From: Rhodothermales bacterium
GTDB taxonomy: Bacteria > Bacteroidota > Rhodothermia > Rhodothermales > Bin80
Reading direction: 5' to 3'
Assembly: GCA_958296045.1 (NCBI GenBank)
Contig: CATQHT010000003.1
Span: 1,933,246 to 1,997,245 of the forward strand
DNA length: 64,000 bases
Shown here: one piece after another, positions 57,019-63,680 of the stretch
Position numbering within the stretch: the first letter of the stretch is position 1
Layout of the letters: each line of letters begins with the position of its first letter
The notes under the pieces: generated by a model
What the model saw: the letters and a program-made list of their open reading frames with translations, nothing else
What the model was told of the DNA's origin: nothing
The model's database searches: none
Program-made: the position numbers and the translations under genes

Positions 57019-57091
57019 ATTTCAATTGGTCACGTACTAACTTTGCAATTGGTTACCACTCTAGTTTGCAATCGGTCATGACTCGCATGGC
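57019..57091. repeat. Three 23-bp-spaced direct repeats at the AAA ATPase start
   Basis: The core CAATTGGT occurs at 57023 and 57046 and as CAATCGGT at 57069, exactly 23 bp apart. Extended similarity is the 15-base pattern ATTTCAATTGGTCAC, TTTGCAATTGGTTAC, TTTGCAATCGGTCAT. The third copy contains the ATG at 57078. Such evenly phased copies (about two helical turns) are typical of iteron-like protein-binding sites. They are placed to repress or control translation or transcription of the ATPase gene. Confidence 0.7.
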
Positions 57092-58349
57092 TCATTCTGG
57101 CCTAGGCTTCTCCAAATCGCTTTATGCGCGACTGGTAACGCCGCGCATTAGTGAAGCATTGTTGGACACCAGGGTCGTACTCCTTGTGGGGCCGCGCCAG
57201 GCGGGCAAGACCACGCTGGTGAAGGCCTTCGCTCACGATCGACTTCCGTACTTCTCACTCGACGATCACACTACGCAGCATTTTGCACGGGCGGATCCCA
57301 CGGGATTTGTCCGGCGTCTGGATCGTGCCATAATCGACGAAGTGCAGCGGGCGCCGGATCTGCTCCTCGCTATCAAGCAGACGGTTGATGCCGACCCCCG
57401 ACCTGGACGGTTCCTGTTGACAGGCTCTGCCAACGTGTTTCGACTTTCAAGTGTGGTGGATTCGCTTGCTGGACGCGTGGAGACGGTGCGTTTGCTTCCG
57501 TTATCGCAGGCTGAAATGCATGGTCAGGCATCGACCTTCCTCGCGAATGTGTTCGCGGGTCGCCTGCCGAAGCGTATGTTGCCTCTCGTTTTGGACGATG
57601 CACTTGTGGATGTGGTTCTTAAGGGCGGCTTCCCGGAAGCGGTGAAGCGCCCTAAGGCGCGGCGCCGGGTGGATTGGCTGATGAGCTATCTGGGGTCCTT
57701 GCTCCAGCGTGATGTGCATGACTTAGGCCAGATCAACCGGGCCGTCGTTTTACCTAGGCTGGCACAGATTCTTGCAAGCATGTCGGGTCAGCTACTAAAT
57801 GTCACTCGCGTCGCACAGATGCTGGGTGTAAGTCGGTTAACAACGCAGCGGTACATTGACGCACTGGAAAACCTATTCCTAGTCTACACGCTGCCGCCAT
57901 TCCATTCCAACGCGTTAAAGCGCCTGATCAAGTCGCCAAAACTTCATCTCTTGGATTCCGGTCTACTTGCAGCCGTGGGCAACAGCACGGCCGAAGCCTT
58001 GCGCTGGGATAGGACACCGCTTGGTCGGCTATTGGAATGCTTTGTCCTGGGCGAACTCCTAAAGATGTCCGACAGTGCGAGTGGGCGTTATCGGCTGTCG
58101 CACTTCAGAGATAAGCAGCAGAACGAGGTGGACTTCGTCTTGGAAGATTCCGGCGGTTCAGTAGTGGGCATTGAGGTCAAGGCAGCGGCAACGGTTACCG
58201 GGAAGGATTTTCGCGGATTGCTGCGATTGCGGAACGGCTGTGGTACGCGATTCAAGATGGGCATAGTGCTTTACAACCACGACCGTGCATACTGGTACGA
58301 CCGCAACATTGCGGCGGTGCCGATTTCTTCTTTGTGGTCTGCCGGCTGA
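57078..58349 (+). CDS. AAA_14/DUF4143 ATPase
   Basis: This protein of about 423 residues starts at ATG 57078, with an alternative at 57087. Walker A G-P-R-Q-A-G-K-T-T is at residues 38-46 and Walker B A-I-I-D-E-V-Q near 85-91. T-G-S-A-N-V-F is sensor-like. The C-terminal DUF4143 region contains a winged-helix-like part (R-V-A-Q-M-L-G-V-S-R-L-T-T-Q-R-Y) and a D-x(n)-E-x-K set (E-V-D-F-V-L ... G-I-E-V-K-A) as in PD-(D/E)xK nuclease folds. The family is widespread in prokaryotic accessory DNA, with unproven function. It lies in a transposon cluster and is preceded by phased repeats. It is probably autonomous and self-regulated; this is inference. Confidence 0.88.
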   Translation: MTRMAHSGLGFSKSLYARLVTPRISEALLDTRVVLLVGPRQAGKTTLVKAFAHDRLPYFSLDDHTTQHFARADPTGFVRRLDRAIIDEVQRAPDLLLAIKQTVDADPRPGRFLLTGSANVFRLSSVVDSLAGRVETVRLLPLSQAEMHGQASTFLANVFAGRLPKRMLPLVLDDALVDVVLKGGFPEAVKRPKARRRVDWLMSYLGSLLQRDVHDLGQINRAVVLPRLAQILASMSGQLLNVTRVAQMLGVSRLTTQRYIDALENLFLVYTLPPFHSNALKRLIKSPKLHLLDSGLLAAVGNSTAEALRWDRTPLGRLLECFVLGELLKMSDSASGRYRLSHFRDKQQNEVDFVLEDSGGSVVGIEVKAAATVTGKDFRGLLRLRNGCGTRFKMGIVLYNHDRAYWYDRNIAAVPISSLWSAG

Positions 58350-58394: not shown

Positions 58395-60108
58395 CAGCGA
58401 TTCTAAATTTGGGGCGTTCGGTGGGGGAACGGATCTTGTTTTGCGGTAGGCTACGCGCATGCGGGCTGTGAGTTAGGCGGTTGGTGGACGGAAGCAGGCA
58501 ATAAGAAGCTACATTTGAGGCGCCACCAATCCGCCAGAGGCATACGACGGCCTTCCAGGTCTCTGGAATTCCCGCTTACCCTATTTGTGACATACAATCT
58601 TTCAGGCTCTCGCGACGGAAAGCGCCAGCGGAGGCGAACGACGGTACAACATGCTTTCCCAGAGACTTCGCCAGTCGGGAAAGCAATATCTCGTCGTAAG
58701 CACGCGCACTTCCTGAAAGAAAGCGCGCCGCACCTGGTAGGATGCTCGGCATTGCCTCCACAACCCTTTTACTTGGTCGAGCATCGTATGCAGGGCAAAT
58801 GCCAACAGGTTGAGGGTAGCTAACAGGTTTGCCAGCCCATTTTTGCCATGCCCGAAGTTGTGTTTGAAGTTCTGTCCGTGTCGTGCGAGGATGTTGAAGC
58901 ACTCGTTCTCGATTTTCCAGCGCGCCCGCCCACAAAGAGCAACCTCCTGTACATTGTGCTTCGTTACCGTCAGGCTGGTGAAAAGCGTCGTGTAGAAGGT
59001 CTGCTTGTAGGTGCCCTGCTTTTGGCGTACCCGCACGGTCTTTTCCACCCATGTGCCGTGTACGGCATCGTCCGTGTTCCGAATCGGCAGATCGGTCATC
59101 CAGCGATAGCAGTGCTCTTCGTAGCGACGTGTCTTCTTGTTCTGCACCCGAATCCAACCGGTGCTCTGGATATAGCGCTCGTGTAAAAACTTGAATAGCG
59201 TTTGATGCGACTTGGGTTTGACCACAAACAGGAAATCGGCGCCCGCATGGAGCACCTGTTGGCAGAAGGGGTGTGTAGCATATAGGGCATCTCCCAGATA
59301 TACCGGACGATAGCGAGCCATGCGAGCTCCCCACTTCGTTAACCACCGCTTAGCGGCATTGATCTCGCAATCCTGCTTGCGACGCCGCACCGAGTGCTGG
59401 TCGCCAGGATCATCCTGTGTGCGGACAAACTCTGGCATCAACGGTACCACCCGGCTGTGCCCTGGAGCCACCACAACCGCCGCCACCATGGTATGGAAGA
59501 ACGAAGGACGCTTGTCTTTCCCCGTGCGACGAGAGGAGCATTGCTTACAATGGATTGTCCGAGAGGAATGAAACTCGATGCCATCAAGCGCCACAAGGAT
59601 GCGATCCCTCAGACGCACAAACGGCGAAAAGTCTCCCTTGGAACGAAGCGTATCCAGCAGGTGCAGAAACAGGCGCTGAAATGAATCTGGCACCAGGCGG
59701 TCCAGCAGGTTGCGGATCTGCCCGTCAGAGGGAATGCCTTGCATACCAAACAGCGTCTGGCAGGTGGAACGGCCCACGTCGTCCTCCATCCTCCGCTGAA
59801 AAGCAAGAAAGGAGGGCGATTGCAGAAAGAAGCAGGCAAATGCGCTCAACACGGCATCGGCCAGCGTGTAGCGCAGATTGGGCCCCCGACGGTTATCTTC
59901 AAATGTACCGGCGGCCGATCGGATGCGTTTCAGCGCATCGCGCAGCAGCTTGCTTGGTTTCATGGGTATACCTCAGTGAAAGACAAAAGCACGCTATAGC
60001 AGGGCATCGCAGGACCGGTATTGCCAGTCCATACACCCATGATACACATAACGTCTGCTGAACAGGCATTCCCGTAAACCCTACATGCATCTAAATTTAG
60101 AATCGCTG
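58395..60108. mobile_element. Intact insertion sequence (1714 bp) with 16-bp TIRs and 9-bp target duplication
   Basis: Both ends read CAGCGATTCTAAATTT inward (left at 58395, right end at 60108 in inverted orientation): 16 of 16 matching. The flanks are identical 9-bp direct repeats CCCCCATAA at 58386-58394 and 60109-60117. One DDE transposase gene fills the minus strand. The left 180 bp, 3' of the transposase, is the source-type sequence of the right half of both MITEs in this window. The target duplication includes the terminal bases of another IS end (CCCATAAGCG), so this copy inserted into an older element. Confidence 0.93.
58602..59963 (-). CDS. DDE transposase (IS4-like/ISNCY type)
   Basis: This 453-residue protein occupies nearly the whole IS. 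An RNase-H-type catalytic triad is visible: D127 in V-A-L-D-G-I-E-F, D225 in Y-L-G-D-A-L-Y-A, and E352 in R-W-K-I-E-N-E-C-F-N, followed by the family-like H-N-F-G-H-G-K-N-G-L-A-N. The frame is uninterrupted and the ends are intact, so the copy may be active. Family placement is tentative: it resembles IS4-superfamily proteins but lacks the strict Y-R-E-K spacing of true IS4. It is a candidate to mobilise the two MITEs in trans. Confidence 0.9.
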   Translation of the reverse strand: MKPSKLLRDALKRIRSAAGTFEDNRRGPNLRYTLADAVLSAFACFFLQSPSFLAFQRRMEDDVGRSTCQTLFGMQGIPSDGQIRNLLDRLVPDSFQRLFLHLLDTLRSKGDFSPFVRLRDRILVALDGIEFHSSRTIHCKQCSSRRTGKDKRPSFFHTMVAAVVVAPGHSRVVPLMPEFVRTQDDPGDQHSVRRRKQDCEINAAKRWLTKWGARMARYRPVYLGDALYATHPFCQQVLHAGADFLFVVKPKSHQTLFKFLHERYIQSTGWIRVQNKKTRRYEEHCYRWMTDLPIRNTDDAVHGTWVEKTVRVRQKQGTYKQTFYTTLFTSLTVTKHNVQEVALCGRARWKIENECFNILARHGQNFKHNFGHGKNGLANLLATLNLLAFALHTMLDQVKGLWRQCRASYQVRRAFFQEVRVLTTRYCFPDWRSLWESMLYRRSPPLALSVARA

Positions 60109-62178: not shown

Positions 62179-63680
62179 CCCATATGCGTTAACTTATTAA
62201 TGTCAATGTGATCCTGTATGTTGCCAGCGTCTACACTGAGATATGGCCACCAAGGGGGATCATGCTGAGAAGTGAAGACCGTTGCGGGCAACGACGACCA
62301 GGAATGTCCAGAAGCATGGCGTACTCTTCGGCCGCGAAGTGGAGAGCGCACTGTCACCTCATCGTTAGTCTGGAGAATAGATGAAGTGGACCGTATCAAA
62401 GGCAGCGGATGACAAGGAGTGGGGCCTGCTGGTGTCGTTCCTGCCTGCGAATTGGCAAGAACTAGCCGCCTCTACCGGCGCATTACGCGGCCTGCGTAAG
62501 GACAAGTCACCGGAAAGGCTCCTTCGGACATTGCTGATTCACTTGGGGTGCGGACACTCGTTGCGGGAGTCAGTCGCGCGGGCTCGTCAGGCTCAACTGG
62601 CCAACTTATCTGCAGTAGCGCTGCTCAAACGATTGCGTAAGTCACGAGACTGGCTCTATGCTATGTGCATGGAGCTGTTTCACGAGCATGGAATTGAAGT
62701 GTCCACAGGCGGCGGATTTCAAATGCGGGCATTTGACGCCACTGTTGTGAGTGAGCCTGGTCGCACTGGCTCAACATGGCGGCTGCATTACAGTGTTACT
62801 CTGCCATCACTGGGCTGCGATTTCTTTAAATTAACTGGAACGAAGGGAGCTGGCACGGGGGAATCGTTCAAGCAATTTCCAATCCGGGCAGGTGATTACA
62901 TACTGGCTGGCCGCGGGTACGCTACCGGTGCGGGTATTGAGCATGTGACCACAGCGGGCGGCTACGTAACGGTGCGCGTCAATACCGGTGCGCTGCGCTT
63001 TCAGAAAGCTTCCGGTCAGCCCTTTGACCTGCTGTCATCGGTAGAAACGCTGCAGCAGGCTGGGGCTGTGGGATTCTGGGCCACAGCCGTTAATGCAGAA
63101 ACGCCAGTGGTGGGACGCATTTGTGCACTACGAAAGACGGAGGAAGCAATCGAAGATGCACACAAAAAGATCCACAGGACCGCACAGCGTAAAAGAAAGA
63201 CGCCTCGCAGAAAGACCTTGCGGTACGCGCGCTACGTCATCTTGTTCACCACCTTCCCCGAGGACAAGTATACCGTAAAAGAGGTGCTTGAGTGGTACCG
63301 GCTACGCTGGCAGGTTGAACTGGTGTTCAAGCGCTTCAAATCGCTAGCACAACTGGGTCATTTGCCCAAATCCGACGATAACAGTGCCAGAGCATGGCTC
63401 TACGGGAAGCTGCTAGTAGCCCTGCTCACCGAAAAGATCGTCCGTCATGCGCGGACTCTTTCCCCTTGGGGCTACGACGCGCAGGCGTACGAGCAGTACG
63501 TGGAGGGACTTCAAGTTCGCGCTTAACCAAGTTAAGCGGACGATTGAGCCCGAGTGCTCATTATCTGAAATGATTCAACACTGACCTACTATTTCTGGGC
63601 AGTTGGCGGCACCTCCGAGAGTTAGAGTCAACCAAGTGGAACGCTATTTCCCAAGCTTTTTACAAGTTAACGCTTATGGG
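62179..63680. mobile_element. IS4-type insertion sequence (about 1.5 kb)
   Basis: The left end CCCATATGCGTTAACTT (62179) and the right end, inverted from 63680, CCCATAAGCGTTAACTT, agree at 16 of 17 positions. One transposase gene fills the + strand. I find no matching 9-12-bp target duplication: left flank GGAACACTC, right flank AATCCCTCA. The flanks may therefore have been rearranged or have diverged. It splits the AlbA_2 regulator gene. A second, solo left end of the same element is at 60109. Confidence 0.85.
62381..63526 (+). CDS. IS4 family transposase with altered catalytic residue
   Basis: This 381-residue transposase has the first catalytic Asp at D119 (R-A-F-D-A-T-V-V) and the IS4 signature Y-x2-R-x3-E-x6-K exact at Y306, R309, E313 and K320. 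The second catalytic Asp normally lies in a D-R-G-Y motif. Here the sequence is A-G-R-G-Y with G177 (GGC) where GAC would be expected. If real, this single change should abolish DNA cleavage. The frame is otherwise intact. A sequencing error or a truly inactive copy are the two explanations. Confidence 0.92.
   Translation: MKWTVSKAADDKEWGLLVSFLPANWQELAASTGALRGLRKDKSPERLLRTLLIHLGCGHSLRESVARARQAQLANLSAVALLKRLRKSRDWLYAMCMELFHEHGIEVSTGGGFQMRAFDATVVSEPGRTGSTWRLHYSVTLPSLGCDFFKLTGTKGAGTGESFKQFPIRAGDYILAGRGYATGAGIEHVTTAGGYVTVRVNTGALRFQKASGQPFDLLSSVETLQQAGAVGFWATAVNAETPVVGRICALRKTEEAIEDAHKKIHRTAQRKRKTPRRKTLRYARYVILFTTFPEDKYTVKEVLEWYRLRWQVELVFKRFKSLAQLGHLPKSDDNSARAWLYGKLLVALLTEKIVRHARTLSPWGYDAQAYEQYVEGLQVRA

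What the first reader, a model, noticed from the sequence alone, without database searches (positions are those of the whole stretch)
57019..58349. Phased 23-bp repeats overlapping the start of a DUF4143 ATPase
Three copies of a 15-base core at 57019, 57042 and 57065 are spaced exactly 23 bp, the last including the start codon. DUF4143 ATPases are abundant, have a PD-(D/E)xK-like C-terminus and a winged-helix-like part, and no agreed function. Iteron-like sites at the gene itself suggest the protein binds its own start region. This could make a self-regulating, perhaps mobile or toxin-like, DNA-binding unit.
Basis: partly seen in the sequence, partly recalled or inferred. Interest (0 to 1): 0.68.

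Follow-up and report, generated by a model that had tools for sequence, protein, structure and literature searches.

The report
Self-tagged start sites of DUF4143 ATPases
One of the commonest untested candidate anti-virus gene families in bacteria carries, right in front of many of its genes, a row of short DNA repeats spaced exactly 22 or 23 letters apart (or, in other branches, a long mirror-image sequence) that the gene's own protein probably binds, which offers a first handle on how these genes work.

Summary
In detail: three copies of TTTSCAATYGGTYA at 57019, 57042 and 57065 (period 23) form the best three-copy phased repeat in the 64 kb window. It is a family trait. Of about 180 DUF4143/AAA_14 genes tested, 73 have a significant phased array just upstream of the start, and 72 of these have period 22 or 23 out of 26 periods tried; controls: 1 of 199 other gene starts, 2 of 94 3' sides. 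The repeat sequence changes with the protein subfamily, the spacing does not. Of 68 members without an array, 26 have an inverted repeat, mostly within 40 bp of the start (controls 2/200, 2/64, 0/68). The protein is PADLOC's untested defence candidate PDC-S01, predicted as a STAND-like ATPase joined to a PD-(D/E)xK-like domain. Best reading: an operator bound cooperatively by the gene's own product. Self-binding is inferred, not shown; co-variation with the repeat peaks after the winged helix, not in it. No 3' copy was found, so a transposon end is unlikely.

The parts
57019..57032 (+). repeat copy 1 (ATTTCAATTGGTCA)
57042..57055 (+). repeat copy 2 (TTTGCAATTGGTTA), 23 bp after copy 1
   Evidence: exact pattern unique in the genome apart from copy 3
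57065..57078 (+). repeat copy 3 (TTTGCAATCGGTCA), 23 bp after copy 2; ends on the A of ATG 57078
57087..58349 (+). AAA_14 + DUF4143 gene (PADLOC PDC-S01); likely start ATG 57087, alternative ATG 57078
   Evidence: low confidence of residues 1-13
57189..57218 (+). Walker A region (residues 38-47 from ATG 57078); G38, R40, G43, K44, T46 invariant in 16 diverse members
   Evidence: A2
57741..57893 (+). winged-helix-like part, about residues 222-272
   Evidence: AlphaFold2; weak phmmer match of residues 221-273 to TtgV, E 0.0075
58125..58181 (+). PD-(D/E)xK-like signature E350-x-D352 ... E366-x-K368, invariant in 16 diverse members
   Evidence: A2

Best explanation
The repeats are an operator: a row of binding sites for the gene's own product, laid over its start and probably its promoter. 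SHOWN by computation: phased repeats at 22/23 bp stand in front of many related genes, the spacing is constant while the sequence changes with the protein subfamily, the core is kept between copies while the spacers are not, and family members without an array often have an inverted repeat in the same place. PREDICTED: the protein is a STAND-like ATPase with a winged helix and a PD-(D/E)xK nuclease-like domain. INFERRED: subunits sit one per 22-23 bp repeat and assemble side by side through the ATPase module, which both represses the gene and holds the protein on its own DNA. Nucleotide state or a phage signal would then release or rearrange the assembly, raising expression and freeing the nuclease-like domain. 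The gene and its sites travel together because they form one self-contained regulatory unit.
For: Array at the start in 51/94, 10/46, 8/29 found by protein alone in viral contigs and 4/15 plasmid/phage rows (4 of those 15 were already). 72 of these 73 have period 22 or 23. Controls: 1/199 starts of other ORFs, 2/94 3' sides. After clustering at 70% identity 24 of 79 still have one. Spacings inside 45 arrays: 97 x 23, 71 x 22, 1 x 21. In 32 arrays of L008-L039 the TTTCAA and GTC positions are 75-96% alike between copies, most spacer positions 8-39%. Motif distance follows protein distance, rho 0.49 over 36 genes. Whole-genome pattern scans: 21 of 22 hits in 14 rhizobial genomes lie at DUF4143 genes, reversed control 0. 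Inverted repeat in 26/68 array-less members, controls 2/64 and 0/68 and 2/200. TTGACnTTCA, -35-like, overlaps one copy in 31/32 of L008-L039.
Against: No binding was measured. Motif-protein correlation can arise from shared descent. Co-variation does not peak in the recognition helix. The promoter scan found no consensus promoter in the window or in L018. 42 of 140 members showed neither array nor strong inverted repeat, including the four other DUF4143 genes of the window's own genome. Three orphan arrays without a nearby gene exist. Same-genome pairs were too few to exclude a host reader; one pair (L114/L048, 48% identical) has nearly the same motif.
Confidence: 0.7

Rival explanations
1. 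The repeats are one end of a mobile element, bound by the DUF4143 protein acting as a transposase or transposase helper.
For: Array plus gene forms a unit with edges near the first repeat and about 30 bp past the stop in unrelated surroundings (L046/L048 and L065/L116). The family has a nuclease-like domain. Many copies per genome.
Against: No inverted copy on the 3' side: in 50 array genes the best 3' inverted match reached p<=0.05 in one (L034, p 0.04), no more than chance. No target duplication was shown. Array-less relatives have similar gene-sized edges.
Confidence: 0.1
2. A host protein, not the gene's own product, reads the repeats.
For: One same-genome pair with only 48% protein identity shares nearly one motif (L114/L048).
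Against: Arrays occur with the gene in Pseudomonadota, Bacteroidota, Actinomycetota and phage-derived contigs. Same-genome relatives can have clearly different motifs (L105/L049, L106/L051). Motifs are absent elsewhere in the genomes scanned apart from relics.
Confidence: 0.13
3. The array is a tandem-duplication by-product without function.
For: Some arrays are long and look expanded: L060 has 16.2 copies of a 46-bp dimer, L113 15.8 copies, L062 11.6.
Against: Core conserved but spacers diverged between copies. Period fixed at 22/23 across phyla. Other branches keep an inverted repeat in the same place.
Confidence: 0.04

Closest known systems
PADLOC PDC-S01 (phage defence candidate, single gene)
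   Same: The window protein matches model PDLC04790 at E 3e-159; all 16 diverse members of A2 and nine further members match PDC-S01 models. Described as an ATPase fused to a PD-(D/E)-X-K domain (PMC12988326, passages seen).
   Different: In the passages seen nothing is said about binding sites at the gene; the arrays and the inverted repeats are new here.
STAND NTPases, in particular the transcription activator MalT
   Same: The model matches archaeal ATPases 2qen (Z 15.2) and 2fna (Z 14.8) and NLR, CED-4, Apaf-1 and Avs5 chains over about residues 11-300. MalT multimerises and binds its MalT boxes cooperatively (PMC4381067, one passage seen).
   Different: No sensor repeat domain is seen; a PD-(D/E)xK-like domain follows; the sites seem to lie only at its own gene.
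Iterons of plasmid replication initiators (recalled)
   Same: Direct repeats of about 20-23 bp in phase, next to the gene of a protein with a winged-helix-like part.
   Different: No replication-initiator family match; the gene lies on a 2.88 Mb contig; the repeats lie at the gene start.
Type II toxin-antitoxin operons (recalled)
   Same: Small autoregulated unit with its operator over the promoter; in Rhizobium it lies in a cassette row with ParDE-like and PIN/Phd-like modules, named from sequence by eye.
   Different: One gene, no partner; no toxicity tested.

Membership tests
PADLOC PDC-S01 | match to a PDC-S01 profile over the whole protein | tested here: met
   PDLC04790 E 3e-159, residues 10-418 of 420
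PADLOC PDC-S01 | anti-phage activity | not testable with these tools
   candidate only; PMC12988326 says validation is pending for most such candidates
Pfam DUF4143 + AAA_14 | both domains above curated cut-offs | tested here: met
   both families in 16 of 16 diverse members
STAND NTPase | NTPase core plus helical and winged-helix parts in the STAND arrangement | tested here: met
   2qen Z 15.2, rmsd 3.9, 252 aligned; plant NLR, CED-4, Apaf-1, Avs5 in the list
STAND NTPase | C-terminal sensor repeats | tested here: inconclusive
   Pfam finds only DUF4143 after the ATPase
PD-(D/E)xK nucleases | conserved acidic and lysine residues of the active site | tested here: met
   E350, D352, E366, K368 invariant in 16 of 16; E350, D352 invariant in 37, E366, K368 in 90% or more
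PD-(D/E)xK nucleases | nuclease activity | not testable with these tools
   needs protein
Transposon with terminal inverted repeats | inverted copy of the end repeat on the other side | tested here: not met
   50 genes, no excess over shuffles
Iteron replicon | replication-initiator protein family | tested here: not met
   only AAA_14, AAA_16, DUF4143
Type II toxin-antitoxin | two adjacent small genes, toxin and antitoxin | tested here: inconclusive
   single 420-aa gene; one search lists overlapping ORFs only, but no partner search beyond that list was made

The most novel reading that the evidence does not exclude
The array is not only a thermostat but the safety catch of a one-gene immune or addiction device: PDC-S01 protein is held as an inactive row of subunits on its own 22/23-bp sites, and loss, occupation or destruction of that DNA (phage takeover, loss of the element) frees an armed STAND-nuclease. 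Array length (2.5 to about 32 copies) would set how much protein is held. The DNA array would play the part that an antitoxin or a sensor plays elsewhere.
Probability: 0.15. Interest if true: 0.93.

Novelty: new variant of a known kind. Interest (0 to 1): 0.77.

Why it matters
PDC-S01 is reported as the fourth most common defence system across prokaryotes, with 29,494 bacterial and 9,986 archaeal cases, and the passages seen give no tested mechanism for it (PMC12988326). A recognisable DNA site at the gene gives a first concrete candidate ligand for the protein. It lets one test binding, autoregulation and de-repression on phage infection, predict sites from sequence, and classify the family by site type (22-bp array, 23-bp array, inverted repeat). 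One published transcript change fits regulated expression: a DUF4143 gene of Thermus thermophilus (TT_P0211) rose 6.6-fold with a plasmid when Argonaute was present (PMC4406477, section 7 read); the gene that I take to be it has no array.

Tried and rejected
Transposon end: no 3' inverted copy. CRISPR-like or genome-wide repeat: pattern scans find the repeats almost only at DUF4143 genes. Consensus promoter: none found by the tool. The first structure job was poor (pLDDT 58); the second with 37 diverse sequences gave 91. Three viral-contig scans with single proteins gave nothing. The T-arm-like site pattern was too strict (0 hits); a weight matrix was used. Papers: 'DUF4143' 1 paper, 'COG1373' 7, 'PF13635' or 'PF13173' 1, 'DUF4143 domain-containing protein' 0, 'PDC-S01' 3, and four further searches. 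Seen: the listings, passages found by term in PMC4406477, PMC12988326, PMC13356809 and PMC4381067, and one section of PMC4406477. That no paper describes these repeats rests on those searches of an open-licence library only.

Rows dropped: seven loci had no gene by the Walker-A pattern (L040, L041, L043, L044, L057, L066, L073), L001-L003 were left out as copies of the window locus, and genes with a repeated protein start or a short upstream stretch were skipped by the script; L117, L134, L139, L147 and L156 had no gene by the pattern and L119 was a duplicate (L147 and L156 were tested); 34 loci, 5 duplicates set aside. L008-L039 are close relatives of each other (31 labelled Rhizobiales or a genus of it, one Exilibacterium MAG, L019) and make up 32 of the 51 positives; one search gives the clustered count. 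The sets were not compared with the 140 for duplicates beyond the four loci named. Shuffle p-values have a floor of about 0.005 (200 shuffles) or 0.0025 (400). The first look for a 3' inverted copy was suggested by L046-L048 and failed when tested on 50 genes.

Full report
WHAT IS THERE. Three copies of a 14-base core stand at 57019, 57042 and 57065 with a step of exactly 23, the last reaching the A of ATG 57078. Over the whole 64 kb window and all periods from 15 to 40 no other place has a three-copy phased repeat as good. The core is found nowhere else in the 4.78 Mb genome. The gene has AAA_14 and DUF4143 domains. From the homologues and the model the likelier start is ATG 57087, which puts the array immediately upstream of the coding part.

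THE REPEATS ARE A FAMILY TRAIT. The protein found 37 loci in bacterial genomes and matches in 57 of 148 related genomes. The upstream stretches of L008-L039 (31 Rhizobiales, one Exilibacterium MAG) show TTTCAA-N3-GTC copies at a 22-bp step, and all 32 reach the p floor in the formal test. That test, the best three-copy phased repeat in 225 bp upstream against 200 dinucleotide shuffles, was made on every gene found by a Walker-A pattern: 51 of 94 and 10 of 46 reach p<=0.005. Twenty-nine distinct viral-contig relatives, chosen by protein only, give 8, and 15 plasmid and phage rows give 4, among them Collinsella aerofaciens, Bacteroides ovatus and Caulobacter. Of the 73 positives 51 have period 22, 21 have 23, and one (L093) was first scored at 15 but also has a 22/23 array. 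Starts of other ORFs give 1 of 199, 3' sides 2 of 94. At 70% protein identity, 24 of 79 representatives are positive: 9 of 10 at 45% identity or more to the window protein, 13 of 26 at 36-45%, 2 of 36 at 28-36%, 0 of 7 below. Outside that set, relatives of only 23-33% identity in viral contigs also have 22/23-bp arrays, so the trait is not confined to one clade.

ANATOMY. In 45 arrays measured one by one the steps are 23 (97 times), 22 (71) and 21 (once); most arrays keep one step throughout, and the last copy often ends 14-20 bp before the assumed start. Lengths run from 2.5 copies to about 32 (L060: 16.2 copies of a 46-bp dimer; L113: 15.8; L062: 11.6). In the 32 arrays of L008-L039 the core positions agree between copies in 75-96% (TTTCAA 83-96%, GTC 75-96%), most spacer positions in 8-39%, which is what selection on a binding site leaves and what fresh duplication does not. 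In 31 of these 32 loci TTGACnTTCA, a -35-like hexamer that overlaps a copy, is present, with TAGTTT 18 nt later in 18 of 31. The consensus promoter scan found nothing in the window or in L018, so the promoter placement is inference.

THE SITE FOLLOWS THE PROTEIN. Motifs differ by subfamily: TTTCAATYGGTCA (rhizobia), TTTGCAATYGGTCA (window), AATCCCAATTGTCC and TTCCCAAATTT (L051, L050), TGACAATCAGCCG or TGCAAATCTACCG (L105, L059), TTCCACCAC (L056), AAGCCAAACTGCCG (L217). Over 36 non-redundant genes motif distance correlates with protein distance, rho 0.49. A sliding-window scan, controlling for the whole protein, peaks at reference residues 271-340, model residues about 283-352, the stretch from the end of the winged helix into the nuclease-like domain (partial r up to 0.31, permutation p 0.0005), not at the recognition helix (0.03-0.12). 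Shared descent is not removed by this test. Eight same-genome pairs show no uniform tendency to share motifs. Whole-genome pattern scans put 21 of 22 hits in 14 rhizobial genomes at DUF4143 genes (by coordinates) with 0 in the reversed control; five of the 14 had no exact hit; the exception, L158, is a two-copy relic. In 12 genomes of the window's family 20 hits fall in eight genomes, again with 0 in the control; two sites, L161 and L162, have no DUF4143 gene within about 2 kb.

THE OTHER SITE TYPE. Of 68 family members counted as lacking an array, 26 have an inverted repeat at p<=0.005, mostly spanning about -40 to +5 (for example L084, L094, L099), against 2 of 64 3' sides and 0 of 68 internal stretches and 2 of 200 starts of other ORFs. 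A second batch of 32 rows, three already in the first, gives 5. The four other DUF4143 genes of the window's own genome have neither type at that level. Overall 72 of 140 were counted as array-bearing on the looser criteria as inverted-repeat-bearing, and 42 as neither.

THE PROTEIN. A model from 37 diverse sequences has mean pLDDT 91 and pTM 0.91. Its first 300 residues match archaeal ATPases 2qen and 2fna (Z 15.2 and 14.8) and then NLR, CED-4, Apaf-1 and Avs5 chains, the STAND arrangement. The C-terminal part carries E-x-D ... E-x-K, invariant in 16 of 16 diverse members. PADLOC names it PDC-S01 at E 3e-159; all 16 members of A2 and nine further members with an array, an inverted repeat or neither match too. 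PMC12988326 (passages) calls PDC-S01 the fourth most common defence system in prokaryotes and an ATPase fused to a PD-(D/E)-X-K domain, and says that validation is pending for most such candidates.

HOW IT MOST LIKELY WORKS. The simplest reader is the encoded protein, a STAND-like ATPase, whose relatives assemble into rings or rows. Sitting on the array it would shut its own promoter. MalT is a STAND protein that binds its boxes cooperatively after multimerising (PMC4381067, one passage); here the target is the protein's own gene. Steps shown: the sites, their spacing, their link to the family. Predicted: the fold. Inferred: binding, repression, release, nuclease action, role in defence.

MOBILITY. 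Pairs of relatives in unrelated surroundings share a stretch that begins near the first repeat and ends about 30 bp after the stop (L046/L048, L065/L116); array-less pairs are also gene-sized. No inverted copy lies on the 3' side. In Rhizobiaceae the gene is one cassette in a row of directional cassettes bounded by a tRNA T-arm-like 30-mer: 58 sites in gene orientation, 0 opposite, 0 in shuffles over 34 loci. The matrix was built from 28 sites of the same loci, so those score by construction; the strand bias of the rest does not. In L167 its neighbours in the row read as toxin-antitoxin modules (named by eye, not by a profile search).

VERDICT. The kind of thing, an autoregulatory operator, is known; its presence as a constant 22/23-bp array or an inverted repeat across a vast untested defence family is, as far as these searches show, not described.

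Noticed in passing
L008-L041, e.g. L167:13880-19204 (R. mesosinicum HU56): Directional rows of single-module cassettes bounded by a tRNA T-arm-like 30-mer (GGGTCGCAGGTTCGATTCCCWTCAAGRGC): 58 sites on the gene strand, 0 on the other, 0 in shuffles. Cassettes hold toxin-antitoxin-like pairs and the DUF4143 gene. No integrase was identified; integron-like in plan, but the site does not look like an attC (recalled).
   Followed up: partly
L158:2571-2604, L161:2451-2593, L162:2423-2454: Orphan repeat arrays with no DUF4143 gene within about 2 kb; L161 lies upstream of an ORF that starts like an outer-membrane receptor (by eye).
   Followed up: partly
L060 upstream (-759 to -15), L113, L062: Very long arrays, up to 16 copies of a 46-bp unit made of two alternating 23-bp repeats.
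   Followed up: no
L047 (and a single copy in L046), about 100 bp upstream of its own array: A second short array of another motif (CCTTGCATTCAGCCG), suggesting a relic of a different family member.
   Followed up: no
L146 (Pseudomonas mendocina plasmid): Two different sites: a four-copy 22-bp array at -263 to -178 and a two-copy motif at the start codon.
   Followed up: no
L196, L201, L098, L155, L212, L214 upstream: Array-less members from different sources share inverted CCTTGCA...TGCAAGG-like arms at the start.
   Followed up: no
window 58602-59963 (-) and 62381-63526 (+): Two DDE transposase genes lie downstream of the DUF4143 gene.
   Followed up: no
L220:4854-6074 (T. thermophilus HB27, annotated TT_RS11170): An ATP-binding gene that I take to be TT_P0211 of PMC4406477 by position; no array upstream, weak inverted repeat.
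   Followed up: partly
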